From Streptoalloteichus hindustanus (GTDB lineage Bacteria; Actinomycetota; Actinomycetes; Mycobacteriales; Pseudonocardiaceae), in the NCBI RefSeq assembly GCF_900129375.1, contig NZ_FQVN01000002.1, forward strand, positions 744,001-808,000: a stretch of 64,000 bases of DNA, in the 5' to 3' direction. A model generated the notes under the pieces. The model did not search any database, had not been told where the DNA came from, and saw only the letters and a list, made by a program, of their open reading frames with translations. How positions within the stretch are numbered: the first letter of the stretch is position 1; every line of letters starts with the position of its first letter. The position numbers were made by a program, and so were the translations under genes. Of the stretch, positions 50,898-64,000 are shown one piece after another.

Positions 50898-53366
50898 ATG
50901 AAACGACCGAGCGCGATGCTGCTCACCGGCGATCTCCGCGAGTACGCCCTCGCGGCGTCGGTCAGCCGCCGCTTCGCCGCCCAGCGGGGGCTGTCCTCCT
51001 GCCAGCCCGTCTGCCGCCCCACCCCGGTGTCCGGCCGACCGCCGCCCGGTCAGCTGCGGGCGCAGGGGCACTACCGCACCGTCGGGATTCCCCTCGACGC
51101 CCTGACCGGGCCGGGGAACCTGGACCGGCGGGCCCGAGCCCTGCGGCACGCCTTCTTCCCCGCGCACGCCCCGCCCGTGGTGGCCGCGCCCACCTGGCCG
51201 CCCGGCCCGCTCGCCCGCGCCGTCTTCACCGCCGTCAGCTCGGACCGGCCGCTGGTGTTCGCCGAGACGGCCACCGCGCTCCGGGAACCGGCCCCGGAAC
51301 CCGGTGGCCACTGGGTGCTCGCCGACTCCCGCAGCCCGCTCGCCGTCGTCGCCGCCGGGTACGCAGCCGCCACCGGAAAGCGGTTCGCCGTCGTGGAACG
51401 CGGCGAGCACCTCGGCGACTGGCTCCGCCGGGTCGAGCACGACAGCGCGATCCTGGTGGCAGAGCACGGGGTGTTCGGCAAGCCGTTCCTCCAGGAACTC
51501 GCCACCTCCCGGCAGTCCCCGCTCGCGCCGGGCGTCATGACCGCCTACTCGGCGGCCCGGTTCAGCCGCCTCGTCTGGCGGCTCCTCGCCCACCGCGACT
51601 TCCGGGCCGGGGGCGGTCGGTTCGGCGAACCGGACCGGCGGCCGGTCCCGCTGCGCGACACCGCGCCCCTGGAGCACTACGTCCTCAGCGGCCACGGCAA
51701 CGAACTGCACGTCCACCACGGCGACGACGAGGTGGTCTGCGGCGCGTTCCCGGTCGAGGAGCGCACCGGGGCGCCGGAGGGCTTCGACTGCGAGCGCGGC
51801 TGCCCCTACCCCGGCCGCATCCGCGGCGCGGACGTCCCCGTCACCACCGCCGTCCTGCTGAGCTGCGAGTCGGCGACCTTCGGCGACGGCTTCGCCCCGC
51901 GCGGGCACTCCGTGCTGCTCAACCTGCTCGACGGCTGGTGCACGTCCGTGATCGCGCCCTACAAGCACGCGATGGTCACCCCCGAGCTGGAGTCGCTGGC
52001 CGAGGCCCTGGTGCGCGGCGGCTACCGGTTGGGGGAGATCGCGGAGCGGCTGAACTCGCTGGTCGGCCCGCACGGGGTGCCGGACGCGCCGTTCGTCCTG
52101 CTGGGCGATCCCGAGCTCGTCCCGGCCACCACGCCGAGGGTCGATTCGGCGGTTCGGTTGGCGCGCCAGGGAAACGCGGTGGTCGTCGAGTGCCGAACCG
52201 CCGGAAGTCGGGTGCTGGACAGCGTCATCCCCCTCGACCACCTCGGTCCGGTCACCGCGGTGCCCCGCGGTCTGGCGGTCGAGCCGGTGTCGGCGGAACT
52301 CGTCTCCGCCGACGTGCGGTTCGCCTTCCGGTCCCCGCCCACCGCCGACAGCGTCGGCGTTCTCGTCTTCGGCCGGACCGAGTTTCCCGCCGTTCCACTG
52401 CGTTTCCGGCTCCGCCGGGCCGCACTGCCCACTGTGGACGAACTCGACCGACTGCGCGCCGACCTCCGCGCCGTCGCCGACCTGTCCGCCCTCGGGCTCG
52501 ATCCCGCCTTCCTCGCCGCCCAGACGCGGGGCATCGCCGACCTCCTGGACCCGCTCCTGGCCTATCCCCGGCTTCCGGAGAGCATCCTCAACCACACCCT
52601 GCTCCGGCACTACGACGCGCTCAGGGACAGCGTCCTGCGGGTGGCGCGTCGCGCCGTCCTCGGCCAACTGCGGGAGATCCTCGGAGAGACGGCCCTGTGG
52701 ATCAGCCACCGCTACGCGGGGAGCTACGGGCTGACCGACCGCACGCGGGCCGACGACCCGCTGCGGCCCTGCCCTCGGTGCGCGGCAAGCACTTCCGCCT
52801 GGCGGTACACCGGCGGCTGTCGGGGCCTGGCGCCGCGAACCGTGGAGGTCTGCCCGCGGTGCGGCATCGTCGCCGACACCCCGGACCCGGCCGCGCTGGA
52901 CGTGACGTTCGCCGGTTCGGGGGCCTTCACCGACCGGACGGAGCACCGACGGGTCACTGTGCGCAACCTGTCGACTGTGCGCCAGGACGTCTCCCTGTTC
53001 GCCCAGTTCACCGAGTGGCGCGCGCAGGGGATCTCGGTGGAGCCCGGGATCGTCGACACCCACCTGGGGCCGGGCGAGGAGACGGCGTTCACCTTCACGT
53101 TCTCCTGCCGCGACCGCCCGCACGACGAGCTGGCCAGCCTGCACGTCTTCGCGCTCACCGCTCGCTTCGCGCTGTCCTGCTTCACCCAACGGGTGCTGGT
53201 GTGCCAGGCCGGCACGCCGACCCGGGTCGGCGTGCCGGCGGGCGAGGACGGCCCAAACGGACCGAGCGGTCCGAGCGGTCCGCGCCTCGGCCCGGTGCTC
53301 CCGATGGTCGCCAGGCCGGTCGAGGGCGCGGGCGCGAAGCGCGGGTCGGGTGGGGGAGAGGGGTAG
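50898..53366 (+). CDS. Putative caspase-fold (C25/CHAT-like) peptidase with zinc ribbon
   Basis: An 822-residue protein. A region around residues 260-420 has the caspase-fold signature: the catalytic His is in HYVLSGHGNELHVHH and the Cys in TTAVLLSCESATFGDG, and a later strand reads GVPDAPFVLLGDPELV, as in gingipain-type C25 and CHAT proteases. Residues 620-660 form a zinc ribbon (PCPRCAAS ... EVCPRCGIV), and residues 670-780 are a beta-sandwich. It has no clear signal peptide. ATG 50898 follows AGGAAAAG; GTG 50838 would add 20 residues. As the first gene of the operon it may process a peptide made by it. The assignment rests on motifs only. Confidence 0.65.
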   Translation: MKRPSAMLLTGDLREYALAASVSRRFAAQRGLSSCQPVCRPTPVSGRPPPGQLRAQGHYRTVGIPLDALTGPGNLDRRARALRHAFFPAHAPPVVAAPTWPPGPLARAVFTAVSSDRPLVFAETATALREPAPEPGGHWVLADSRSPLAVVAAGYAAATGKRFAVVERGEHLGDWLRRVEHDSAILVAEHGVFGKPFLQELATSRQSPLAPGVMTAYSAARFSRLVWRLLAHRDFRAGGGRFGEPDRRPVPLRDTAPLEHYVLSGHGNELHVHHGDDEVVCGAFPVEERTGAPEGFDCERGCPYPGRIRGADVPVTTAVLLSCESATFGDGFAPRGHSVLLNLLDGWCTSVIAPYKHAMVTPELESLAEALVRGGYRLGEIAERLNSLVGPHGVPDAPFVLLGDPELVPATTPRVDSAVRLARQGNAVVVECRTAGSRVLDSVIPLDHLGPVTAVPRGLAVEPVSAELVSADVRFAFRSPPTADSVGVLVFGRTEFPAVPLRFRLRRAALPTVDELDRLRADLRAVADLSALGLDPAFLAAQTRGIADLLDPLLAYPRLPESILNHTLLRHYDALRDSVLRVARRAVLGQLREILGETALWISHRYAGSYGLTDRTRADDPLRPCPRCAASTSAWRYTGGCRGLAPRTVEVCPRCGIVADTPDPAALDVTFAGSGAFTDRTEHRRVTVRNLSTVRQDVSLFAQFTEWRAQGISVEPGIVDTHLGPGEETAFTFTFSCRDRPHDELASLHVFALTARFALSCFTQRVLVCQAGTPTRVGVPAGEDGPNGPSGPSGPRLGPVLPMVARPVEGAGAKRGSGGGEG

Positions 53367-53371
53367 GCGCT

Positions 53372-53707
53372 GTGGACTTCGAGAGCGGGCGGGACGGCGC
53401 CGGGGCGGCGGGCCGGGCCGTGGCCACAAGGACCACAAGGACCACAAGGACCACAGTGGACCTTCGGTCGTCGTGGAACCGGTACGCCGTCCGCGATCTC
53501 TCGGCCATCACCGGCTGGGGTGAAGTCGACCGCGTTCGGACCGCGCTCCGGTGCTGGTCGGGGCGGGCCGACCAGTGGCTTCGGGCAGCGGGCGAGGCCG
53601 AGGGCGGGGACAGTGGGGAGCGGGACCGGCCGGGTCCACTGTGGAGGGGCCGGCCAGCCGCCCGGCGGCCAGCGGCGACGGGGAGGACCGACGATGACGA
53701 GACCTGA
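53372..53707 (+). CDS. Small protein of unknown function in the radical-SAM operon
   Basis: A 111-residue frame from GTG 53372, 5 bp after the protease stop, with strong third-position G/C. It starts with a Thr/Arg run from a 9-bp repeat (ACAAGGACC three times), then a more ordered segment (LRSSWNRYAVRDLSAITGWG, EVDRVRTALRCWSGRADQWL) and an Arg/Pro-rich tail. Its stop overlaps the following ATG region by 14 nt. No family recognised; a partner or recognition protein is possible. Confidence 0.55.
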   Translation: MDFESGRDGAGAAGRAVATRTTRTTRTTVDLRSSWNRYAVRDLSAITGWGEVDRVRTALRCWSGRADQWLRAAGEAEGGDSGERDRPGPLWRGRPAARRPAATGRTDDDET

Positions 53708-54173
53708 CGGGGACAACGCCGTCCTCCGGGCCGTCCAGGAGGCGCTGTCCGGGTACCACCGCCAGATCGAGGAAGTCGACGAGGAGCTGTCCCGGCTCGT
53801 CCACCGGCGCGAGGAGATCGTGGTCGGGGCGCGCACGGCCCTGCTCGAACAACTTCCCGAGGACGTCAGGGGCGGGCTGGCGCGGGAGATCGCCGCCGAG
53901 CGCCCGCCGAGCGCGCTGGGGGCGCGCGCCGCCGGCCACCTGGCCCAGCTCCCGGCGGTGGTGAGCCAGGAGGTCGAGGCGCTGCACGCGCGGCTGCGGG
54001 GATTCCACAGCGAGATCGAGGGGATCGACGCGGACCTCGCGCGCCTGGTGCACAGGCGGGAGGAGCTCGTCACGGCGGCGCGCGAGGCCATGGCCAGGTG
54101 CGTGCCCGACGAGGCCGAGGAACACGCGGCCGACCGCACGCCCCGGGTGGCGATGGCGTTGGCCTGTTGGTGA
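53694..54173 (+). CDS. Coiled-coil protein made of a duplicated helical unit, ending in Ala-Cys-Trp
   Basis: A 159-residue helical protein with an internal duplication. Unit 1 is YHRQIEEVDEELSRLVHRRE and unit 2 FHSEIEGIDADLARLVHRRE, about 95 residues apart, each followed by a further helix. The C-terminus is short and non-helical, RTPRVAMALACW. A leader-like helical part with a short tail carrying Cys and Trp could be a modified substrate, or the protein may be a scaffold. It overlaps its upstream neighbour, and its TGA shares an A with a following ATG (TGATG). Confidence 0.7.
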   Translation: MTRPDGDNAVLRAVQEALSGYHRQIEEVDEELSRLVHRREEIVVGARTALLEQLPEDVRGGLAREIAAERPPSALGARAAGHLAQLPAVVSQEVEALHARLRGFHSEIEGIDADLARLVHRREELVTAAREAMARCVPDEAEEHAADRTPRVAMALACW

Positions 54174-54271
54174 TGCGGGACGGCGGCGCCCCCAACCCGC
54201 CGCCGGGCGGACCGGCGACGGACCGGGGGCGCGGGGAGCCGGGCGAGGAGGAGAACGGATGGAGTCGGTGA
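54173..54271 (+). CDS. Tiny frame linked by TGATG overlap
   Basis: A 32-codon frame starts at the ATG inside TGATG (54171-54175) and ends within the ATP-grasp start region at 54271. The product is Gly/Pro-rich then acidic (MRDGGAPNPPPGG ... EPGEEENGWSR). The overlap supports translation, but the composition is low-complexity and it also covers the ATP-grasp ribosome site. Low confidence. Confidence 0.25.
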   Translation: MRDGGAPNPPPGGPATDRGRGEPGEEENGWSR

Positions 54272-55605
54272 CGACGGAGAAACCCGGTGACGACAACCGG
54301 CCGGTCCTGGTGGTGGTCGACCCCCAGGTCGCGTTGTTCCGGTACCTGGCCGTGGCGCGGCGCAAGGGGTACCGCACGGTGGTGCTGGCGCTGGACCCGG
54401 GGTTCTGCCGGGTCGAGGAGGCCAGGCACAACCGGGCCGCCTTCGGGATGGACGCCGTGACGGACACCGCCACGATCGCCGGTGTGGGCACGACGAGCCA
54501 CATCGACACGCTCATCCAGTGCGACACCGGGAGCGCGAGCGCCATCCGCGACGCGCTGGCGCCGTTCGCCGGCCGGATCGCCGGTCTGCTGCCCGGTGAC
54601 GATCCCTACATCCCGGCGACCTTCGAGGCCGGCCGCGCGCTCGGCTTCGACTGCCCGCCACCCGCCGACGCGGTGTGCCAGCAGTCCAAGAGCGCGATGA
54701 AACGGCGGCTGGCCGAACGGGGTGTGTCCACTCCGGACTTCCGGATCGCCGCGGACCCGGCGGAGGCGGAGCGGCACTGGATCGCCCTCGGTCGGGACTG
54801 CGTGGTGAAGACGGTCGACCACAGCACGAGCGCCAACGTCTTCCGGGTCAACAGCCGGGAGCAGCTCGCGGACGCCTGGGACTCCATCATCACCAACCGA
54901 CTGGCCATCCCGGGGCCGTTCCCGTTGAGCAGGGAGATCCTCCTGGAGGAGGTCGTCCTGGGCCGGCGGCTGAGCGCCGAGGGCTACGTCCGGGACGACC
55001 GGGTGGAGTTCCTGAACTTCTGCGAGAAGATCACCTCGAACGACTTCGTGCTCCTCGGGCACCTGGTGCCGGCGGCGCTGTCGCCGGAGGAGGAGGCGAA
55101 GGTCAGGGCGGTGGTCACCGACTGCGTGGCGGCGCTGGGAATCCGCGACAGCGTGTTCCACGCGGAGGTCCACCTGCGGGAGGGCGTCCCGCACGTCGTC
55201 GAGTGCGCCGCCCGACCGCCCGGGCAGCACGTCGTCGACCTCATCTGGCGCAGCCGCGGCTACGACCTGATGGACGTCGCCATCGACCTGGCCGTTGGCA
55301 AGCCCGTGCACGTGCGCAGCAGGCCGCCGCGTCGGCACTACGCGATGTCGGTCCTGTTCGCCGACGAGCCGGGGCTGGTGACCGGGATCGAGGGGTTGTC
55401 CGAGCTCCGCGCCCGGGGCGGTGTCCGCCAGGTGTACCTGGAGGTGCGCCCCGGCGACCGGGTCGACGCGTCGCGGACCTCCCGGCGCCGCTACGGGTTC
55501 GTGGTCGTCGAGGACGACACGGCCGAAGGCGTGCGGGAGAAGGCCGCGTGGCTGCGGGACAACGTCCGGCTGGAGATCGCGGGGGCCAGTGTTCTGGTCT
55601 CCTGA
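54259..55605 (+). CDS. ATP-grasp ligase
   Basis: A 448-residue carboxylate-amine/thiol ligase. The pre-ATP-grasp Rossmann-like domain starts VLVVVDPQVALFRYLAVARR. The ATP-grasp core contains SKSAMKRRLAERGVSTPDF, the nucleotide-binding strand CVVKTVDHSTSANVFRV, REILLEEVVLGRRLSAEGYV, and the metal-binding FHAEVHLREGVPHVVECAAR-PPG. It resembles L-amino acid ligase/carboxylase-type enzymes (PF13535-like) that join a carboxylate to an amine. It is preceded by GAGGAGG. It probably makes an amide bond during product assembly; it is not of the RimK kind used by microviridins. Confidence 0.85.
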   Translation: MESVTTEKPGDDNRPVLVVVDPQVALFRYLAVARRKGYRTVVLALDPGFCRVEEARHNRAAFGMDAVTDTATIAGVGTTSHIDTLIQCDTGSASAIRDALAPFAGRIAGLLPGDDPYIPATFEAGRALGFDCPPPADAVCQQSKSAMKRRLAERGVSTPDFRIAADPAEAERHWIALGRDCVVKTVDHSTSANVFRVNSREQLADAWDSIITNRLAIPGPFPLSREILLEEVVLGRRLSAEGYVRDDRVEFLNFCEKITSNDFVLLGHLVPAALSPEEEAKVRAVVTDCVAALGIRDSVFHAEVHLREGVPHVVECAARPPGQHVVDLIWRSRGYDLMDVAIDLAVGKPVHVRSRPPRRHYAMSVLFADEPGLVTGIEGLSELRARGGVRQVYLEVRPGDRVDASRTSRRRYGFVVVEDDTAEGVREKAAWLRDNVRLEIAGASVLVS

Positions 55606-55738
55606 CCACGGCCGCGCGCCGAGCCGACGACGACGTCACCGACAGTCCACAGTGGACATCCGAGTTGGGGCCCTCCCGAAGGGATGGGAAAGCCGTGTGC
55701 CCACCACTTCGTCGGACCCGCTCCGGGCCGGTGCGCCG

Positions 55739-55843
55739 ATGAGGAACCCGTGTCAAGGTCGGTGTCAAGGTCCGTGTCGAGGTCAATGTCATGGCGGAAC
55801 TCCCGTTCCGGGACGAGCGATCGGGGAGACCTGGGTGTGGTGA
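55739..55843 (+). CDS. Possible Cys-rich small peptide overlapping the radical SAM start
   Basis: A frame from ATG 55739 (or GTG 55697, with GGGATGGGA upstream) contains C-x3-C-x3-C-x3-C: PCQGRCQGPCRGQCHGG, ending GETWVW. Its TGA overlaps the radical SAM GTG (GTGA). The Cys pattern comes from a 12-bp tandem repeat (GTGTCAAGGTCS) over 55751-55795. Third positions in this frame are poor in G/C, so it may be only a repeat; the same bases read better in other frames. It is listed because of its position. Confidence 0.3.
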   Translation: MRNPCQGRCQGPCRGQCHGGTPVPGRAIGETWVW

Positions 55844-57300
55844 ACTGGAAGGAAGATCCCTATCCGGCGCGGCTCGCGGAGGAGCTGCCCGACGGCGTCG
55901 TGCGCTGTCTGCTCAGCCCGCGCCACTGCCGGATCAGGCCGGGGCAGCACGGGTTCTGCATGGTCAGGGCCAACCGCGACGGCCGACTGGTCAGCCTCAA
56001 CTACGGGCGGTCCGTGCACGCCACCGAGGAGACCATCGAGACCGAGGCGGTGTTCCACTACGCGCCGGGTGAGCCGATCCTGTCGATGGGCAACATCGGC
56101 TGCATGCTCAACTGCGACTACTGCCACAACTGGAAGACGTCGCAGGCGCGGTTCGTCTCCGACGACGACATCCACCGCTACACCCCGGACGAGGTCGTGG
56201 AGATCGCGCTGCGCCACGGCATCCGGGTCCTGTCCTGGACCTACAACGATCCCGTGGTGTGGCACGAGTTCGTCACGGAGACCGCGGCGCTCGCGCGCAA
56301 GGCCGGGCTGGTCAACCTGTTCAAGTCGGCCTTCTTCATCTCCCCGGAGGCCGTGGCGGAGCTGCTCCCGGTGATCGACATCTTCTCGATCTCGGTGAAG
56401 TCGATGGACCCCCGGTACTACCGCAGGCTCACCAAGGGGTGGCTCGAACCGGTGCTCGACGGCGCGAGGCAGGTGCACCGCGCCGGCCGGCACGTGGAGA
56501 TCTCCACGTTGATGGTGACCGACCTCAGCGACGACGAGAAGACCGCGCGGGCCGTGGCCCGGTTCGTCGGCGAGGAACTGGACCCCGCCGTGCCGTTGCA
56601 CTTCGTGCGCTTCCACCCCGACTACAAGATGACCAACAGTCGGCGCACGCCGCTCGACCGGCTGGAGCACGCGCGTCGCGTGGCCCTGGACATGGGCATT
56701 CACCACGTCTACCTGGGCAACGTCTACGACACCGACGCCACCGTCACCACCTGCCACTGGTGCGGGCACCGGCAGGTCACCCGCTACGGCCTCAACGCGA
56801 GCGTTGTGGGCGTCGGTGCGGACGGAACCTGCGGTGGCTGCGGCAAACCCGCCAACCTGACGCTTCTCCCGGCGCGGCCCGCCCGCGCGACTCTCGCCGA
56901 GCTGCCCACGGGCCAGCACCTGCGCACCGCGGGTTTCCACTGGCACGGGGACGTGCGTTCCCTGCACATCCAGGTGCGCAACGACAGCGACTCCGCCCGC
57001 ACCCTCTACCAACGCCGCTTCGGCACGGACTGCGCGCCGGCCTGGACGCCGCTGAACCTCCTGCCCGGCGAGAGTTACCGCTTCATCGCGGCGAAGGCGA
57101 CACCGGGCGAGCAGGGTGTGGAGGTCGCCGTGTCCGACGATGTGCGGTGCAGCCTGCACGAGGTCTTCGACCGCGCGCACTTCCCCACGGTGGAGACGAG
57201 TGCCGGCTCGCTCAACGACGACGTCACGCCGTTGCCCAGCTACGACGCGGCGGTGGGCCGCCCACTGCCCGTGCTCGACGTCGAGGGATCGACGCGATGA
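55837..57300 (+). CDS. AmmeMemoRadiSam-type radical SAM enzyme with extra C-terminal domain
   Basis: A 487-residue radical SAM protein. The N-terminal LLSPRHCRIRPGQHGFCMV and ILSMGNIGCMLNCDYCHNW segments are typical of the AmmeMemoRadiSam family, with the 4Fe-4S cysteines C-x3-C-x2-C near residues 89-96. Zinc-finger pairs CHWCG and CGGCG follow near residues 306 and 331. About 140 further residues (from SLHIQVRNDSDSARTLYQRR) form a beta-rich extension not usual in the family. GTG 55837 or 55840 is the start (GGGGAG upstream). AMMECR1 and Memo partners are missing. Its stop overlaps the next radical SAM gene (ATGA). Confidence 0.88.
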   Translation: MVNWKEDPYPARLAEELPDGVVRCLLSPRHCRIRPGQHGFCMVRANRDGRLVSLNYGRSVHATEETIETEAVFHYAPGEPILSMGNIGCMLNCDYCHNWKTSQARFVSDDDIHRYTPDEVVEIALRHGIRVLSWTYNDPVVWHEFVTETAALARKAGLVNLFKSAFFISPEAVAELLPVIDIFSISVKSMDPRYYRRLTKGWLEPVLDGARQVHRAGRHVEISTLMVTDLSDDEKTARAVARFVGEELDPAVPLHFVRFHPDYKMTNSRRTPLDRLEHARRVALDMGIHHVYLGNVYDTDATVTTCHWCGHRQVTRYGLNASVVGVGADGTCGGCGKPANLTLLPARPARATLAELPTGQHLRTAGFHWHGDVRSLHIQVRNDSDSARTLYQRRFGTDCAPAWTPLNLLPGESYRFIAAKATPGEQGVEVAVSDDVRCSLHEVFDRAHFPTVETSAGSLNDDVTPLPSYDAAVGRPLPVLDVEGSTR

Positions 57301-58910
57301 GGCCCGACGTCGACTACCGGGTGATCGACCTGGACGAGGACGCCGGGTTGCTCTTCCTCGCCGGCAACCACCGCGCGTTCGTGGTCGACCCCGGGCTGGC
57401 CGACCGGTTGCGCCACGGCCTGGACCACCTCACCGAGGAGGAGCGCGCCGAGTGGCGCAGCCTGGTCGGTGTGGGGCTGGTGTCGCAGGAGAACCGCGAC
57501 GCGCTGAGCGCCAGCACGGCCGTCGACGGCGCGGACCTGGCGATCAACGTCAACCTCACCAACACCTGCAACCTGGCCTGCGCCTACTGCTTCGCCGACG
57601 GCGGCGACTACGGCCGCATCACCGAGGCCATGGGGCACGAGAGCGTCGACCACATCTTCGCTTTCGTGGAGCGCAACCTCACGCCCCGCCGGTCGGTCCG
57701 GCTGGAGTTCTTCGGCGGGGAGCCGTTGGCCAACTTCCCCGTGCTGCGCGAGATCTGCGAGCGCGCGGAGCGGGTCGGGGCCGAACGCGGCGTCCGGTTC
57801 GTCCACCGCGTTTCCACCAACCTGACGCTGCTTCCCGAAGGTGCGCTCGACCTGTTCGCCCGACACCGGTTCATCGTCTCGGTGTCCATCGATGGCTGCC
57901 GGGAGGTCCAGGACGCCAACCGCCCGGCCAAGGGCGGCCAGGGGTCGTACGACCGGGTCATCCGGAACGTCCGTGCCGTGCGCGAGGCCGGCGACGACAT
58001 CACGCTCGTGGCCAGGATGACCGTCGCCCAACATCATCCCTCGTTGCTGCACAACGTCCGGGAGCTGTGGAAGCTCAACCTTTTCGACTACTTCCAGATC
58101 TATCCCGGTGTCTTCCCAATGGAGGGCGAGGAGTCGCGGAGGCCGTCGGGGCCGGTTTTCGTCGAGATCGGCCGCCGGCCGGATGATCAGGACACGCCGG
58201 TTCCCTCGTTGACGGGTTGCGGGTCGACGGCCTCGACGGCATCGGGAAGACGGCACGTCAACTTCTTCCTGCGGGACGGGATGGTCGAGCAGTTCCGCGA
58301 CTTCCTGCGGGACTACCCCACGCTCTTCGCCGAGGACAACCGGTTCAAGGGTGTGCTGGAGTACGAGCGCACGGTCCAACTCGTCCTCGAAGGGCAGCTC
58401 GCCCTGTCCTTCTGCTCCGGCGGACGGACGTACTTCACCCACTCGCCGAACCAGGCCATCAGTCCGTGCCACCGGCTGGTCGGCGAGTCCCGATTCGACG
58501 TGGGCACAGGGGAACGAGGGATCACGCGGTCCCTGGCGGACTGGCGGCAGACGGTCGACAACCACCCCGTGTGCGGGCGCTGCTGGGCGCGCTACCTCTG
58601 CGGCGGCGGCTGCAAGCAGGAGAACTACGTGGCGAGCGGTGATCTCACCGTGCTCAACGAGGAGTCCTGCCGCTACCAGCTGTTGTTGGCCGAGGAGGTG
58701 CTGCGCATGCTGGGCCGCTCCTCACCCGCCTACCTGCATCGGGACCGACGCCGGTTCGACGACCTGTTCGTCTCCTGTGGACGGCCGGTCGCGCCCAGCG
58801 GCCGTGCTGACCCTGATCCCCGGGCGCTGGCCGGCTTCCGGCACTTCCGACCGGTCACGCCGCCGACCACCCCACTGGTCCTGGACCAGGACGGGGGTGG
58901 ACAGCCGTGA
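57297..58910 (+). CDS. Radical SAM/SPASM maturase
   Basis: A 537-residue enzyme. Residues 1-80 may form a small substrate-binding domain. The SAM cluster is INVNLTNTCNLACAYCFAD (C-x3-C-x2-C) and LEFFGGEPLANF is the SAM-contact motif. The C-terminal SPASM domain carries cysteines around residues 372, 391, 425, 428, 434, 438 and 457 (PCHRL, VCGRCWARYLCGGGCKQENY, SCRY), enough for two auxiliary Fe-S clusters. Such enzymes install thioether or C-C crosslinks in peptides or oxidise residues. ATG overlaps the previous stop (ATGA), and its own stop overlaps the GTG of a 35-codon frame. Confidence 0.93.
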   Translation: MRPDVDYRVIDLDEDAGLLFLAGNHRAFVVDPGLADRLRHGLDHLTEEERAEWRSLVGVGLVSQENRDALSASTAVDGADLAINVNLTNTCNLACAYCFADGGDYGRITEAMGHESVDHIFAFVERNLTPRRSVRLEFFGGEPLANFPVLREICERAERVGAERGVRFVHRVSTNLTLLPEGALDLFARHRFIVSVSIDGCREVQDANRPAKGGQGSYDRVIRNVRAVREAGDDITLVARMTVAQHHPSLLHNVRELWKLNLFDYFQIYPGVFPMEGEESRRPSGPVFVEIGRRPDDQDTPVPSLTGCGSTASTASGRRHVNFFLRDGMVEQFRDFLRDYPTLFAEDNRFKGVLEYERTVQLVLEGQLALSFCSGGRTYFTHSPNQAISPCHRLVGESRFDVGTGERGITRSLADWRQTVDNHPVCGRCWARYLCGGGCKQENYVASGDLTVLNEESCRYQLLLAEEVLRMLGRSSPAYLHRDRRRFDDLFVSCGRPVAPSGRADPDPRALAGFRHFRPVTPPTTPLVLDQDGGGQP

Positions 58911-59014
58911 TCAGGCGTCGCGACATCCGTACCCACCGCGAGGGCCAGATCCACCCCGCCACCGTCTCCCCGTGGGGGGAGGTGCGGTTCGGCGCCTCCG
59001 AGTGCGTGTCCTGA
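58907..59014 (+). CDS. 35-residue peptide coupled to the SPASM maturase (candidate precursor)
   Basis: A 35-codon frame starts at GTG 58907, whose GTGA overlaps the maturase stop. Third positions are G/C in 33 of 35 codons, a strong coding sign. The product begins MIRRRDIRTHREGQ and ends SPWGEVRFGASECVS, so it has a basic front and a short tail with one Cys and aromatic Trp and Phe, residues that radical SAM enzymes crosslink. No family recognised. The 54-bp gap that follows contains the hydrolase ribosome site. It is the best substrate candidate in the operon. Confidence 0.6.
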   Translation: MIRRRDIRTHREGQIHPATVSPWGEVRFGASECVS

Positions 59015-59068
59015 GTGTCCCGTGGTTCCCCGCCCACACCGGGGAACCGGGACGGACGGGAGGAACGG

Positions 59069-59929
59069 ATGATCGGCGACAGCTACCGGGACGCCTTCCC
59101 GGTGGAGCTGGACGGCGGACCGGTCGTGCTCGTCCGGCGGGGGAGCGGGCCGCCCGTGGTGCTGCTGCACGGAATTCCGCTGTCCCTGCTCACCTGGCGG
59201 CACAACGTGGACCAGTTGGCCACCTCGTTCACCGTCCACGCCGTGGATCTGCGCGGCTACGGCAGGTCGGCCAAGCCCCCGACCGCCGACTACAGCGTTC
59301 CCACGTTGGCCAAGGTCGTGGAGAGGGTGCTCGACCGGCTGGGGCTGCCGGCGGCCAGTCTGGTCGGCAGTTCCTTCGGTTGCGCGGTCGCGATCACGCT
59401 GGCGCACCTGTCACCTCGGCGGGTGGACAAGCTCGTCCTGATCAATCCGGTGTGCTACCCGCGCGGCCGTCGCGGCCTGACCCGCCTGGCCAGGAACGGT
59501 GCGCTGGCGGCATTGCGCCGTTCCGCGCTGCGCGCCTCGGGGCTGGGACCGCGCGTGCTGGCGAGGCCGTTGCGGCGCTCCTACGCCAATCCGCGCCTGG
59601 CGACCCGGGAACTGGTTGCGGCGCACCACTCCCTGCTCGTGCACGACTCCGGCGAACGGACCTACCTGGCCACCCTGCGGGCGTTGGACGAGGCGGAGGT
59701 GGCGCGCCGGGTGCCGGAGCTGCGGCAGGACACGCTGGTCATCTGGGGTGAGCGGGACCGGGTGCTGCCCGCGTCCCACGCCAGCCGGATGGCGGAGGAA
59801 CTGCGCAACGCCCGGGTGGAACTGGTGCCGGCCACCGGGCACTTCCCGCACGAGGAGTCGCCCGCCGTCGTGAACCAGCTCATCACCGCGTTCCTCGCCG
59901 GGGCCGGCCGGGCGGAAGGAGCGGGGTGA
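59069..59929 (+). CDS. Alpha/beta hydrolase
   Basis: A 286-residue hydrolase. The oxyanion strand is VVLLHGIPLSLLTWRHNV, the nucleophile elbow SLVGSSFGCAVAITLAH (G-S-S-F-G), Asp in IWGERDRVLP, and His in PATGHFPHEESP. A GGGAGGAA ribosome site precedes ATG 59069. It lies in the operon between the maturase and a methyltransferase and may release or hydrolyse a product ester or peptide. No signal peptide. Confidence 0.9.
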   Translation: MIGDSYRDAFPVELDGGPVVLVRRGSGPPVVLLHGIPLSLLTWRHNVDQLATSFTVHAVDLRGYGRSAKPPTADYSVPTLAKVVERVLDRLGLPAASLVGSSFGCAVAITLAHLSPRRVDKLVLINPVCYPRGRRGLTRLARNGALAALRRSALRASGLGPRVLARPLRRSYANPRLATRELVAAHHSLLVHDSGERTYLATLRALDEAEVARRVPELRQDTLVIWGERDRVLPASHASRMAEELRNARVELVPATGHFPHEESPAVVNQLITAFLAGAGRAEGAG

Positions 59930-60666
59930 CGATGCCGCTGGCGCGCGGGTGGATGGTCTGGGCCGAGCGGGCGCCGGAGCGCTACGACTGGGCGGTCCGG
60001 GTGATGACCCTCGGTCGGCTCGACCGGATCAAGGACGAGATCGCGGAGCGGGTCGGTGTCGGGGACGCGGTGCTCGACATCGGTTGCGGCACCGGAACTC
60101 TCGCGGCGCGCTGCCTGGCGAGGGGCGCGCGGGTCACCGGGTTGGACGCCTCGGAGCCCATGCTGCGCCGAGCCGCTGTCCGGGCCGCGAACGAGGGGCG
60201 CGCCGAGCGGCTGACCCTGGTGCACGACAACGTCGTTCGGATCGCCCAGCACTTCCGGGACAACCAGTTCGACGTCGTCACCGCGACGATGGTGCTCGGC
60301 GAGATCCCCCGGGAGCGCCTACGCCCCGTGTTCCGGGAGTGTTGGCGGGTCCTGAAACCCGGTGGCCGGCTGGTCGTGGCCGACGAGTGCTGGCCCCGCA
60401 CGCGGCCGGCCCGTGCGCTGTACCGGCTGGGGATGGCCGTCCTCTGGATTCCGCAGCTCCTCCTGCTGCGACGGCCGCTGTTCCCCGTCCACGACCTGGA
60501 GGGCACCGTCCGCGACGCCGGTTTCCGGCTGGTGGAGTCCCGGGCCTACCCGGGCACCTCCTTCCGACTCGTCGCGGCGGTCAAGATGCCCGACGCGACG
60601 CCCGTGCTGAACCGGTGCGCGCCCGGCGTGGCGGCGGTCGGCGTCGGCGAGGCGTGGGTGGTGTGA
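59926..60666 (+). CDS. SAM-dependent methyltransferase
   Basis: A 246-residue class I methyltransferase of the UbiE/Methyltransf_11 type. Motif I is VLDIGCGTGTLAARCLARGA, motif II TGLDASEPMLRRAA, motif IV FDVVTATMVLGEIP and motif VI WRVLKPGGRLVVADE. A hydrophobic segment (LYRLGMAVLWIPQLLLL) may dock a membrane or lipid substrate. GTG 59926 overlaps the hydrolase stop (GTGA); ATG 59932 is an alternative. It probably decorates the operon product. Confidence 0.9.
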   Translation: MTMPLARGWMVWAERAPERYDWAVRVMTLGRLDRIKDEIAERVGVGDAVLDIGCGTGTLAARCLARGARVTGLDASEPMLRRAAVRAANEGRAERLTLVHDNVVRIAQHFRDNQFDVVTATMVLGEIPRERLRPVFRECWRVLKPGGRLVVADECWPRTRPARALYRLGMAVLWIPQLLLLRRPLFPVHDLEGTVRDAGFRLVESRAYPGTSFRLVAAVKMPDATPVLNRCAPGVAAVGVGEAWVV

Positions 60667-60776
60667 CGATGCGAGCGATCGAGCACCGCTTCTGGCTGTC
60701 GCTGTGGGAGAGCTCCCACATCTTGCAGTCCACTGTGGACGGCCCAAGAGGACGGTCCACGGCCGAACTACCGTGA
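60663..60776 (+). CDS. Second tiny frame (35-37 residues) in the operon
   Basis: A frame starts GTGACGATG at 60663, overlapping the methyltransferase stop (GTGA), the same junction sequence as the methyltransferase start itself. It reads MRAIEHRFWLSLWESSHILQ and then about 15 less conserved-looking residues that include a copy of the dispersed TCCACTGTGGA palindrome. It stops 10 bp before the amidinotransferase ATG. The first 20 codons have strong third-position G/C and a Phe/Trp-rich sequence. It could be a second precursor or a coupling peptide. Confidence 0.4.
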   Translation: MTMRAIEHRFWLSLWESSHILQSTVDGPRGRSTAELP

Positions 60777-60786
60777 GGACACGGCG

Positions 60787-63120
60787 ATGAACCGTCAGAC
60801 TGATCTTGATGGGATCGTGCGGCTCTCCCCGGAGGACACGCGGAGGATCGCGGCGGTGGCCAACGAACTCGACGTCGACCCCCAGCCCCGGGCGCGCTCC
60901 GCCGCCGAGTGGGCCGAGTTCGCGGCCTCGGTGGCCACCGCGATGCCGGCCGCGCTGACCCAGGCGGCACAGCGGTTCGCCACCGACGGCGCGCCGAACC
61001 ACGTGCTGGTGGTGCGCGGTCTTCCTGTCGACGAGCACCTCCAGCCCACACCGACGGCGGACGACCACCGCGAACTGGGCGGCACGGCACGACGCGGTGT
61101 GCTCGCCGCGCTGGGGGTTCTCGCCCTGCTCGGCCGGCCTCCGGCGTCGACGACGCCGACGGCCTCGACGGGGCCACGGGAGATCCCGGTCGCGCGGCAC
61201 ATCACCCCGGCGCTCGGCCAGAAGCGGGCGGGCGGACCCGGCGAGGCGGTTCTCCTGTGGCGTGGCGCGGACATCCCCGGCGACGCGAGCCGGGCGCACT
61301 TCGGCCTGCTCTGCCTGCGCGGTCGTCCCACCACGTTGTTCGCGACAGCCCGTTCCCTCGCCCTGGAAGCGCGGTGGGAACAGGTGTTGCGCGACACCCG
61401 GTTCGTGCTCCACCCCAACGGCGCCGAACCCCACCCCCGCACCGTGCTGTCCGGACCCCGGTCCGATCCGCGGATCGGGTACGACTCGCTTCTCCTGCGT
61501 CCCCACCGACCCGACGACGCCGAGGCCGTGGAGGCGTTGCGGCGCTTGGCCGTCGAACTCCGACGCGTCGCCCGGAGGCACGTTCTGGAACCGGGAGACT
61601 TCCTCCTGGTGGACAACCACCGCACCGTGCACGCCCACCTCTTCCCCCGCGCCGACCGCGACAACGCCGACTGGTGGCTGTCCCGTGTCCTGGCTCCCGC
61701 CGTACCTCCTGCCCCCACCGCGCCTGCCGCGCCTGCCGCGCCAACGGCGAGGCACCGGAGGAGCACGGCACCAGCTCCTACTCCTCCGGCGGCCCCCGCC
61801 GGCAGCGCCCCACCCACGAACGCCCCACGGACCAGCGCCCCACCGACCACGAAGGTCCCACCCACCAGCACTCCGTCGACCGGTGTTCCGCCCGCCAGTG
61901 CCTCACCAACCAGTGCCCCGCCGACCAGTGCCGGGCCTCCGGCCCCGCCGACCGCTGCCCGGCACCCGGCCCCGCGGCCAGCACCTGTGCGGACCGCCGA
62001 GCGCGGGGCTCCGGCGTCGGGCCCGCCCCCGGTTTCCCGTCAGCAGCCCGAAAAACCGCGGCCGGCCCACTCCCACGACGAGTTCTCCCCGTTGCGGGAG
62101 GTCATCGTGGGCGACGCGGCCAACGCCCGGATCCCAGATCTCCAGCGGGACCCCTCCGCCTGGCTCGCCTTCTACCCCGACCTCACCGCGGCCGAACTGA
62201 CCAGGGTGCGGACGGGCCGGTTCCCGGACCGCGTGCTGGCGGAGACCGAGGAGGACCTGGACCGCCTGGTGGGGAGTCTGCGGGAGCTCGGGGTGGTGGT
62301 GCACCGGCCAGCCCCGGTGGACCACGACCTCATGTTCGTCACGCCGGACTGGTCCTCCTCCGGCGTGACCTCCTACTGCCCCCGCGACCTGACGCTGGTC
62401 CTCGGCTCGACGATCATCGAGGCGCCGAGCCCCACCCGGTCGCGCCAGCACGAGCTGTCCGCGTTCCGCGCGCTGTTCCGCCGTTATCTGGCGGCGGGGT
62501 CGACCTGGATCTCCGCGCCCCGCCCGGAACTGCGGGACGAACTGTACGGAGTGGACGATCAGGGGCACCCGACCCTCGGCGAGGCGGAGCCGGCCTTCGA
62601 CGCGGCGAACGTCCTCCGCTGCGGCCGTGACCTGTTCTACCAGGTGTCGGTCTCGGGGAACGAGGCCGGACTCCGGTGGCTGCGCTCGGTGGTGTCACTG
62701 CTCGGGGACTACCGGGTCCACCCCATGCACGCGACCTGCCCGGGCTCCCACGTGGACACCGCGCTGGCGCTGATCCGGCCGGGGCTGTTGCTGGCCAACC
62801 CGACCTCGTTCACCGACGACACCCTGCCGAAGCCGTTGCGGCGGTGGGAGGTGCTGTGGTGCCCGCCGATGCGGGAGGCGGCGCCGCTCGCCACCCCGTG
62901 GCCGCTCGCCTCGTCCTGGGTCGGGATGAACCTGCTGATGGTCGCCCCGGACCTGGCGATCGTCGACGCGGCGCAGGGCGAGCTGATCGCCACGCTGGAG
63001 CGGCACGGGGTGCGGGTGCTCCCGCACTCCCTGCGGCACGCCCGCGTCCTGGGTGGAGGGTTCCACTGCGTCACCCTCGACACCGTGCGGGACGGGGAAC
63101 TGCGCGACTACTGCGGCTGA
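60787..63120 (+). CDS. Degenerate Fe(II)/2OG oxygenase fused to an arginine amidinotransferase
   Basis: A 777-residue fusion. Residues 1-300 resemble the clavaminate synthase/VioC-like oxygenase fold (HVLVVRGLPVDEH, FGLLCLRGRPTT, GDFLLVDNHRTVHAHLF), but the metal H-x-E region reads LLWRGADIPGD, so two iron ligands seem lost. Residues 300-427 are a Pro/Ala/Thr linker. Residues 428-777 form a complete amidinotransferase of the StrB1/AGAT type: FSPLREVIVGDAANARIP, PAFDAANVLRCGRD, His in PGSHVDTALALIRPG, SSWVGMNLLM, and catalytic Cys in GGGFHCVTLD. It moves the arginine amidino group to an amine. It follows GTGAGGAC in the operon. Confidence 0.88.
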   Translation: MNRQTDLDGIVRLSPEDTRRIAAVANELDVDPQPRARSAAEWAEFAASVATAMPAALTQAAQRFATDGAPNHVLVVRGLPVDEHLQPTPTADDHRELGGTARRGVLAALGVLALLGRPPASTTPTASTGPREIPVARHITPALGQKRAGGPGEAVLLWRGADIPGDASRAHFGLLCLRGRPTTLFATARSLALEARWEQVLRDTRFVLHPNGAEPHPRTVLSGPRSDPRIGYDSLLLRPHRPDDAEAVEALRRLAVELRRVARRHVLEPGDFLLVDNHRTVHAHLFPRADRDNADWWLSRVLAPAVPPAPTAPAAPAAPTARHRRSTAPAPTPPAAPAGSAPPTNAPRTSAPPTTKVPPTSTPSTGVPPASASPTSAPPTSAGPPAPPTAARHPAPRPAPVRTAERGAPASGPPPVSRQQPEKPRPAHSHDEFSPLREVIVGDAANARIPDLQRDPSAWLAFYPDLTAAELTRVRTGRFPDRVLAETEEDLDRLVGSLRELGVVVHRPAPVDHDLMFVTPDWSSSGVTSYCPRDLTLVLGSTIIEAPSPTRSRQHELSAFRALFRRYLAAGSTWISAPRPELRDELYGVDDQGHPTLGEAEPAFDAANVLRCGRDLFYQVSVSGNEAGLRWLRSVVSLLGDYRVHPMHATCPGSHVDTALALIRPGLLLANPTSFTDDTLPKPLRRWEVLWCPPMREAAPLATPWPLASSWVGMNLLMVAPDLAIVDAAQGELIATLERHGVRVLPHSLRHARVLGGGFHCVTLDTVRDGELRDYCG

Positions 63121-64000
63121 ACCGGCTGGTCCCCGCTCAGCGGGATGATCGTGCGGTACTTGCCGCCAGGGGACTGCTGCGGCGGTTCCTCGGCGAGCTC
63201 GACCGAGACGTGCTCGGCGCGGTAGTCGGCGAGCAGGCGGCGGATCTGGTCGCGCACCGCCGGCCACACCTGGACCGGGTCGGCGCCGTGCGAGTACCGC
63301 AGCCGCACGCGCAGGCTGATCGGCGTGGTCTGCACGATCTGGAACAGCTCGATGCCCGGTGTGCGGTCGACCAGGGTGCCGAAGGCCAGGGGCGGCACGC
63401 TGACCTGCCCGCCGTCGCTGGCGGGGAACGACACGATGTCGCCGGCCCGACCGCGCACCTTGATCGCGGGGAGGGGGCTGCCGCAGGGACAGGGATCGGG
63501 CCGCATCAGGATGCCGTCGCCCAGGTCGTACCGCAGGATGGGCTGGACCCTGTTGGCCAGGTTGCTGATCAGGACGGTGTGCGAGACCTCGCCCGGCGGT
63601 GTGGGCCGGTGGTCGGCGTCGACCGGCTCCAACACCACCCAGTCGCTGTTGACGTGCAACCAGCCCTGCCGGCAGCTCGACGCCATGAACGGGCACTCGG
63701 TCGCGCCGTACACGGTGCCGATCGCCGCCTGGAACGTGGTGGCGATGCGCTCGAACTCCTTGGCGCTCAACGACTCCCCGGCCGGCTGCACGAGGACCGG
63801 GTTGATGCGCAGGCGGCCGGCCTCCTGTTCCCCGGCCAGCATCGCGACGACGCTCGCGTAGCCGATGAGGACCACGGGGCGGTACCGGTTGAGCTGCTCG
63901 ACCAGCTCCGGAAGCGGGGTGTGGACGGAGAGAACGCGCATCACCTTGCCGCGCCAGCTGCTTTCCTCACCGGCCCGCATCGCGCCGGTGTACCCGAGGA
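63108..64000 (-). CDS. PaaK/CapK-type adenylate-forming enzyme, N-terminus beyond the window
   Basis: About 297 C-terminal residues of a phenylacetate-CoA ligase-like adenylating enzyme. Visible blocks include the Gly-rich GYTG near the right edge, VVLIGYASVVAMLAGE, TVYGATECPF, ILRYDLGDGIL (D-L-G-D), and PCPCGSPLPAIKVRGRAGDI, whose two Cys resemble the CxCG metal site of the family. The frame is still open at base 64000. Its TAG overlaps the end of the amidinotransferase by 13 nt, convergent. It would activate a carboxylic acid for the same product. Confidence 0.88.
   Translation of the reverse strand, partial: LGYTGAMRAGEESSWRGKVMRVLSVHTPLPELVEQLNRYRPVVLIGYASVVAMLAGEQEAGRLRINPVLVQPAGESLSAKEFERIATTFQAAIGTVYGATECPFMASSCRQGWLHVNSDWVVLEPVDADHRPTPPGEVSHTVLISNLANRVQPILRYDLGDGILMRPDPCPCGSPLPAIKVRGRAGDIVSFPASDGGQVSVPPLAFGTLVDRTPGIELFQIVQTTPISLRVRLRYSHGADPVQVWPAVRDQIRRLLADYRAEHVSVELAEEPPQQSPGGKYRTIIPLSGDQPVQPQ

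What the first reader, a model, noticed from the sequence alone, without database searches (positions are those of the whole stretch)
50898..64000. Uncharacterised operon joining caspase-like protease, ATP-grasp ligase, two radical SAM enzymes and an arginine amidinotransferase
At least twelve plus-strand frames run from 50898 to 63120, most with overlaps or short gaps (ATGA, GTGA, TGATG). Together they offer peptide cleavage (C25/CHAT-like), amide-bond formation (ATP-grasp), radical chemistry (AmmeMemoRadiSam-type plus SPASM-type), hydrolysis, methylation and guanidine transfer, with a PaaK-type activating enzyme converging. ATP-grasp with SPASM recalls 'grasp-with-spasm' peptide systems, but the protease, amidinotransferase and first radical SAM enzyme are not part of those. 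I know no described pathway with this set. A guanidine-bearing, crosslinked peptide-derived product is the inference.
Basis: partly seen in the sequence, partly recalled or inferred. Interest (0 to 1): 0.92.

Follow-up and report, generated by a model that had tools for sequence, protein, structure and literature searches.

The report
Two-radical-enzyme biosynthetic gene cluster
An actinomycete carries an undescribed set of genes built around a pair of radical enzymes that also sit side by side in unrelated bacteria, so the pair probably makes or modifies an unknown natural compound, although no peptide precursor was found.

Summary
Eight plus-strand genes (not twelve) run from 50898 to 63120: caspase/C25-like protein, coiled-coil protein, L-amino-acid-ligase-type ATP-grasp, AmmeMemo-type radical SAM (D), SPASM radical SAM (E), hydrolase, CpaM-type methyltransferase, and a degenerate oxygenase domain fused to a StrB1-like amidinotransferase. 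Overlaps exist only at D/E and F/G.

The core is real: in 9 of 9 loci fetched with E (two phyla besides Actinomycetota), D lies beside E. Eight of 9 add a HemN/HutW-like radical SAM gene that the window lacks. Bradyrhizobium and an acidobacterial MAG also carry hydrolase and CpaM, then an HgcAB-like corrinoid protein; Bradyrhizobium also has the ATP-grasp. In Streptoalloteichus tenebrarius D and E are intact (dN/dS 0.19, 0.25) while protease and ATP-grasp are remnants.

The peptide (RiPP) reading is weakened, not excluded: I recognised no precursor gene conserved between loci, though that comparison was noisy. I favour an amino-acid-derived small molecule. Protease, coiled coil and amidinotransferase were found beside D-E only here (protease also as the remnant), so their membership is less sure. 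The product is unknown.

The parts
50898..53366 (+). A: caspase/C25-like putative cysteine protease (822 aa), with C-terminal CxxC pairs (zinc-ribbon-like) and a tail of unknown fold
   Evidence: Motif order SGHG-LLSCES-LLGDPEL; no profile, PDB or model support; decayed remnant at the same place in S. tenebrarius
53694..54173 (+). B: 159-aa protein of two similar coiled-coil segments, ends ...AMALACW
   Evidence: Pfam Osmo_CC 26.5 bits over 24, a coiled-coil match; no homologue in the nine loci
54259..55605 (+). C: ATP-grasp ligase, L-amino-acid-ligase type (LAL_C2)
   Evidence: Pfam LAL_C2 and ATP-grasp_4 over cut-off; PDB 3vot BL00235 2e-14; 46% homologue in the Bradyrhizobium cluster L017; C-terminal remnant in S. 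tenebrarius
55840..57300 (+). D: AmmeMemoRadiSam-type radical SAM enzyme with an extra conserved C-terminal domain
   Evidence: TIGR04337 286.9 over 220; alignment A4; adjacent to E in 9 of 9 loci; no AMMECR1-type protein found in G000
57297..58910 (+). E: radical SAM/SPASM enzyme; nearest models are nif11, PapB, QhpD-type and SCIFF maturases, none over cut-off
   Evidence: PDB 5wgg 1.5e-43; ATGA overlap with D
59069..59929 (+). F: alpha/beta hydrolase
   Evidence: Abhydrolase_1 5e-36; homologues 48% and 44% downstream of E in L017 and L018
59926..60666 (+). G: CpaM-type methyltransferase
   Evidence: NF043040 246.3 over 180; homologues 50% and 57% after F in L017 and L018; the only over-cut-off CpaM in G000
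60787..63120 (+). H: fusion of a clavaminate-synthase/AsnO-like domain that appears to have lost the HxE iron ligands, a Pro/Thr-rich linker, and a StrB1-like amidinotransferase
   Evidence: PDB 1bwd 1e-95 and 2og5 9e-16; HTE of a homologue aligns with RGA
63108..64000 (-). I: converging PaaK/F390-synthetase-like AMP-binding protein (464 aa; runs beyond the window, L004:1108-2502); membership unsure
   Evidence: AMP-binding 2.7e-5, below Pfam cut-off; TIGR02304 123.7 below cut-off 251.9

Best explanation
A biosynthetic gene cluster for an amino-acid-derived specialised metabolite, built on a mobile core of two radical SAM enzymes (D and E) that act together. Shown: D and E are neighbours in every locus found (9 of 9 besides the window), and hydrolase F and methyltransferase G (2 of 9) and ATP-grasp C (1 of 9) recur with them in other phyla. 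Inferred: C joins amino-acid units by an ATP-dependent amide bond (or puts on a protecting aminoacyl group); E and D do C-H radical chemistry on that scaffold; G methylates; H moves an amidino group from arginine to an amine; F, and perhaps the protease-like A, hydrolyse or release intermediates. The strain-specific genes A, B and H tailor a variant product, and the third radical SAM step (HemN-like) found in the relatives is missing here.
For: D next to E in 9 of 9 loci. HemN/HutW-like third radical SAM gene in 8 of 9. F and G in the order E-(HemN)-F-G in L017 and L018, C in L017. A LysE-type exporter gene after HemN in 5 of 5 Streptomyces loci (clustering; family match tested for one); around the Actinoplanes core an FkbH-domain protein, a PCP-thioesterase, two oxygenases and a cysteinyl-tRNA-synthetase paralogue: in keeping with small-molecule metabolism. 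No conserved precursor gene recognised. C is L-amino-acid-ligase-like. H carries a StrB1-like amidinotransferase domain. D and E under purifying selection against S. tenebrarius: dN 0.096/dS 0.517 and 0.140/0.563.
Against: E's nearest named families are peptide or protein maturases. A precursor could be unlinked, strain-specific or overlooked in the noisy, cut output. The loci were fetched with E as query, so only the neighbours are evidence. The accessory set differs so much between taxa that D-E may have one fixed job (such as modifying a protein) in unlike settings. A, B and H were not seen beside D-E elsewhere except for the remnant of A and an AsnO-like relative of H's N-terminal domain about 7 kb from the HemN gene in L016.
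Confidence: 0.45

Rival explanations
1. Ribosomal peptide pathway: E is a SPASM maturase that crosslinks a precursor peptide; the ATP-grasp adds amides, A is the leader protease, H adds a guanidino group. The precursor is B, an unannotated mini-ORF, or encoded elsewhere.
For: E's closest NCBIfam models are nif11, PapB, QhpD-type and SCIFF maturases; its one PDB match at E 1e-15 is 5wgg, which I recall as the SCIFF maturase CteB. Two mini-ORFs lie in gaps (translations): 55739-55843 (Cys-rich, CQGRCQGPCRGQCHGG...) overlapping the start of D, and 60669-60776 just before H.
Against: No precursor-like ORF conserved between loci was recognised (one search was noisy and its output cut; the one short ORF clearly shared, in L015 and L016, looks like a ferredoxin). 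In L018 the gaps between the cluster's genes are at most 80 bases, though the ends and the 454-base D-E gap of L017 remain. By my reading the Cys-rich repeat is not kept in S. tenebrarius, and the second mini-ORF contains the palindrome that recurs elsewhere. E reaches no cut-off among the 25 of 64 matching families shown.
Confidence: 0.25
2. D-E is a protein-modifying pair whose target protein is encoded elsewhere in the genome; the other genes are merely neighbours in this strain.
For: Of genes A-H only D and E are common to all ten loci. S. tenebrarius keeps D and E intact where A and C are remnants and F-H gave no match in the 27 kb searched. E resembles protein and peptide maturases.
Against: F, G and C recur with D-E in L017, and F and G in L018, at 44-57% identity, more than chance neighbourhood would give. 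D-E is rare (E at 1e-60 in 1 of 396 and 1 of 297 sampled genomes, the carriers themselves), unlike a housekeeping modification.
Confidence: 0.2
3. Composite of two or three unrelated operons: A-B-C, D-E-F-G and H (with I), joined by chance.
For: Gaps of 327, 234, 158 and 120 bases; A, B and H have no homologues beside D-E in the nine loci apart from the remnant of A and an AsnO-like relative of H's N-terminal domain farther off in L016.
Against: A and C remnants lie in the same order before D-E in S. tenebrarius, and C recurs in L017. H follows G on the same strand.
Confidence: 0.1

Closest known systems
AmmeMemoRadiSam system (TIGR04335/TIGR04337)
   Same: D scores over the TIGR04337 cut-off
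   Different: AMMECR1-type partner not found in 9 of 10 genomes with D-E; D has an added conserved C-terminal domain and is paired with a SPASM enzyme
nif11, PapB, QhpD-type and SCIFF radical SAM/SPASM maturases
   Same: E shares the radical SAM core and, as I recall the pattern, the SPASM cysteines
   Different: E is below every NCBIfam cut-off shown (187.4 against 518.7 for nif11), and no precursor gene was recognised beside it
HgcAB-like fusion / CpaM pair (NF043039/NF043040)
   Same: G is a CpaM over cut-off; L017 and L018 carry the whole pair inside the D-E cluster
   Different: No HgcAB-like match in G000; in seven other Acidobacteriota genomes no D or E was seen in the stretches held around it
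Pheganomycin-type loci and graspetides (passages of PMC8939145)
   Same: ATP-grasps with amidinotransferases or with SPASM/radical SAM enzymes are mentioned there
   Different: C is LAL-type; no type III polyketide synthase among genes A-I, and no precursor recognised
Phaseolotoxin clusters (passages of PMC8473136)
   Same: Amidinotransferase and ATP-grasp ligases; in the Pbo cluster a radical SAM gene next to an L-amino-acid-ligase-like ATP-grasp
   Different: The Pbo radical SAM protein is described as lysine-2,3-aminomutase-like; no D-E pair is mentioned in the passages seen
StrB1 inosamine-phosphate amidinotransferase (name StrB1 recalled; PDB 1bwd)
   Same: C-terminal half of H, 1e-95
   Different: Fused to a degenerate oxygenase domain; genes A-G are not an aminoglycoside-type set

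Membership tests
AmmeMemoRadiSam system | Radical SAM member over TIGR04337 cut-off | tested here: met
   286.9 against 220
AmmeMemoRadiSam system | AMMECR1-type partner (TIGR04335) in the genome | tested here: not met
   0 hits in G000; 1 of 10 genomes, on another contig than the cluster
AmmeMemoRadiSam system | MEMO1-type partner (recalled) | not tested
Grasp-with-spasm / graspetide | ATP-grasp of the graspetide type | tested here: not met
   C matches LAL_C2/ATP-grasp_4, and no graspetide model is among its 12 NCBIfam hits at E 0.01; that NCBIfam holds such models is recalled
Grasp-with-spasm / graspetide | Precursor peptide gene beside the enzymes | tested here: inconclusive
   None recognised, but the output was noisy and cut, and a strain-specific or unlinked precursor is not excluded
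nif11/PapB/QhpD-type/SCIFF maturases | Score over an equivalog cut-off | tested here: not met
   Best is TIGR04064 at 187.4 against 518.7; 25 of 64 matching families shown
CpaM methyltransferase | Score over NF043040 cut-off | tested here: met
   246.3 against 180
CpaM-HgcAB corrinoid module | HgcAB-like corrinoid partner in the same genome | tested here: not met
   0 matches in G000; over cut-off in 2 of 10 genomes with D-E
Arginine amidinotransferase | Full-length similarity and Asp/His/Cys residues (triad recalled) | tested here: met
   1bwd 1e-95 over residues 429-775; EPAFDAAN, HVDT and GGGFHC aligned. No Pfam amidinotransferase model hit
Clavaminate-synthase-like oxygenase | HxE/D...H iron triad (recalled) | tested here: not met
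   HTE of one homologue aligns with RGA in H (a two-sequence alignment)
Peptidase C25 / CHAT (caspase-like) | Family profile match | tested here: not met
   the C25 profile had only 3 sequences
Peptidase C25 / CHAT (caspase-like) | His then Cys dyad after strands, then GDP motif (recalled) | tested here: inconclusive
   Motif order present, 0 of 200,000 shuffles, but pattern chosen after the fact

The most novel reading that the evidence does not exclude
A radical-SAM biosynthetic core found in three phyla, AmmeMemo-type plus SPASM, usually with a HemN/HutW-like third member, that recruits exchangeable tailoring modules (CpaM plus an HgcAB-like corrinoid protein in Bradyrhizobium and an acidobacterial MAG; exporters in Streptomyces; amidinotransferase and a caspase-like protease here) and makes a new class of natural product. 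It would give the AmmeMemo-type radical SAM family a testable chemical role and place an HgcAB-like protein inside a biosynthetic pathway.
Probability: 0.35. Interest if true: 0.8.

Novelty: new variant of a known kind. Interest (0 to 1): 0.6.

Why it matters
I know of no assigned reaction for the AmmeMemo-type radical SAM family; the two name searches listed 5 papers and 1 paper, none with such a title (listings only). Here a member is tied to a SPASM enzyme and, in two genomes, to an HgcAB-like corrinoid protein and its methyltransferase. That gives a small, expressible two-gene unit with which to ask what these enzymes do.

Tried and rejected
Single-sequence structure prediction of A (391 residues) failed: pLDDT 34.6, so no fold search was run. 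A three-sequence C25 profile did not recognise A: hhalign score 18.1 on the whole protein, 19.1 on residues 1-560 against 60 shuffles with mean 14.7 and maximum 22.5. Rfam at gathering score: no RNA family in the window or in 8 loci, L011-L018. Plasmid collection: no A at E 1e-5 and no E at E 1e-60. PADLOC: partial viperin matches to E, and mad2 and MTase_II matches to G; a defence system was not pursued. Precursor search by six-frame comparison was noisy, and the output was cut and not read in full; no candidate was recognised. Papers: HgcAB-like fusion (0 papers), AmmeMemoRadiSam, HgcAB with radical SAM or paralog (12 of 216 listed), fused HgcAB (12 of 60 listed), Streptoalloteichus with radical SAM, amidinotransferase with ATP-grasp and radical SAM, AMMECR1 with radical SAM, SPASM/HemN sets: no description of this gene set in the listings. 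Passages only were seen of PMC11588087, PMC8939145, PMC8473136 and PMC9062424; of the others the listing alone.
Full report
What is there. The window lies in a 7.28 Mb genome of the same genus as G001. G001's contig matches that of Streptoalloteichus tenebrarius DSM 40477 in length (334631 bases) and in position of the match, so the source is probably another Streptoalloteichus. Base-composition gene calling (7 of the 8) and homology give eight plus-strand genes A-H between 50898 and 63120 and a converging AMP-binding gene.

Gene identities. C is an ATP-grasp ligase with an LAL_C2 domain, nearest in the PDB to L-amino acid ligase BL00235. D is over the TIGR04337 cut-off but carries an added C-terminal domain conserved in the eight sequences aligned (L014 and L019 left out), and no AMMECR1 partner was found in 9 of 10 genomes with D-E. 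E is a SPASM enzyme below every NCBIfam cut-off shown (25 of 64 matching families listed). G is a CpaM methyltransferase over cut-off, the only one over cut-off in its genome. H joins a clavaminate-synthase/AsnO-like domain, whose HxE iron ligands appear as RGA, to a StrB1-like amidinotransferase (1e-95). A has the His/Cys/GDP motif order of caspase-like peptidases but no profile, PDB or model support.

Conservation. A scan of one genome for each of 84,980 species with an alignment of E gave 9 loci: S. tenebrarius, Actinoplanes, five Streptomyces, Bradyrhizobium and an acidobacterial MAG. The scan used two short peptide patterns, so this is a lower bound. D lies beside E in 9 of 9, divergently in Bradyrhizobium. 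A HemN/HutW-like radical SAM gene is in 8 of 9, the other seven at 54-57% identity to the acidobacterial copy; the exception is S. tenebrarius. It is absent from the window, and the best genome hits in both Streptoalloteichus are 30-35% identical. F and G follow in Bradyrhizobium and the MAG (2 of 9), C in Bradyrhizobium (1 of 9). In both those loci an HgcAB-like corrinoid protein follows G (family score 361.4 over 285 in L018). Several of the nine loci end at contig ends, so absences there are weak. The five Streptomyces loci share a LysE-type exporter gene, and L015 and L016 have a ferredoxin-like ORF before D (my reading). Actinoplanes has FkbH, PCP-thioesterase, oxygenase and cysteinyl-tRNA-synthetase genes around the core. 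E is rare: found in 1 of 396 sampled Actinomycetota genomes (the window's own) and 1 of 297 Acidobacteriota (the MAG itself) at E 1e-60 or better, with at most 3 and 5 candidates scored per genome in the rows shown, and in 2 of 150 relatives at 1e-40 (the own genome and G001). A was found in 2 of 150 relatives, the own genome and the remnant.

The corrinoid link. HgcAB-like proteins are over cut-off in 8 of 297 sampled Acidobacteriota genomes, the MAG included. In the other 7, a CpaM lies directly upstream in 5, and no D or E homologue was seen in the stretches held, some of them only 4 to 9 kb. CpaM-HgcAB is thus probably an independent module that joined the D-E cluster. SAM has been reported as methyl donor for HgcAB (PMC11588087, passages), which would suit a corrinoid methyl-transfer step in those two clusters. 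The window's genome has CpaM without an HgcAB match.

Decay in S. tenebrarius. At the same position, A survives only as fragments (residues 219-271 aligned) and C as residues 427-448, while D and E are full length. dN/dS is about 0.19 for D and 0.25 for E (Nei-Gojobori, one pair, averaged over the whole split). So A and C were once linked to D-E in the genus, and D-E can outlast them. B, F, G and H gave no match in the 27 kb searched there.

Trees. With 9 E and 8 D sequences, E groups the Actinomycetota together, whereas D of Actinoplanes groups with the MAG on a long branch (the program warns of long-branch joining). Pairwise identities of D and E correlate at 0.78 over 28 pairs, inflated by the close pairs. 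Mostly joint inheritance, with one possible exchange.

Mechanism. The most likely reading is a small-molecule pathway: C joins or protects amino-acid units, D and E perform radical chemistry, G methylates, H transfers an amidino group, F and possibly A hydrolyse. Adjacency is shown; every chemical step is inferred. The ribosomal-peptide rival is kept at 0.25 because E resembles peptide maturases; against it, no conserved precursor was recognised and the gaps between the L018 cluster genes are at most 80 bases.

Verdict. A real, rare, cross-phylum D-E core, with a strain-specific variant in the window. The kind of system (a radical SAM gene cluster of biosynthetic type) is known; the combination was not seen in the listings of the paper searches named in Tried and rejected.

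Noticed in passing
window 22419, 25012, 33018, 40406, 41000, 42166, 53635, 55646, 60729: Palindrome TCCAC(A/T)GTGGA occurs 9 times exactly in the window (0.05 expected for independent bases), 5 of 9 outside called genes; with one mismatch 24 against 2.8 expected. Also once each in L004, L009 and L011 (L009 and L011 overlap), none in the other ten loci counted. Possibly a genus-level repeat or operator.
   Followed up: partly
window 55739-55843: 34-codon mini-ORF MRNPCQGRCQGPCRGQCHGGTPVPGRAIGETWVW overlapping the GTG start of D; the Cys part comes from a short repeat in the DNA and, by my reading, is not kept in S. tenebrarius.
   Followed up: partly
window 60669-60776: 35-codon mini-ORF MRAIEHRFWLSLWESSHILQSTVDGPRGRSTAELP between G and H; contains the palindrome; no dedicated homologue search.
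   Followed up: no
window 53424-53455: Three head-to-tail 9-base units (CCACAAGGA) in the A-B gap.
   Followed up: no
L018 10686-12203: One open frame whose first half matches M20 peptidases and whose second half matches MIP-family channels; a real fusion or an assembly join in a MAG.
   Followed up: no
L012 15804-17456: Cysteinyl-tRNA synthetase (TIGR00435 382.7 over 340) a few genes from the Actinoplanes D-E core; may hint at a cysteine-like product, self-resistance or tRNA-dependent chemistry.
   Followed up: no
L017 10623-12539: ThiF-type adenylyltransferase followed in one open frame by a second alpha/beta hydrolase, just before the ATP-grasp gene in Bradyrhizobium.
   Followed up: no
L013 8025-8309, L014 890-1199, L019 7734-8046: Intergenic stretch upstream of D in three Streptomyces loci conserved in several reading frames with stop codons, so probably regulatory DNA or RNA; no Rfam match in L013 and L014 (L019 not scanned).
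   Followed up: partly
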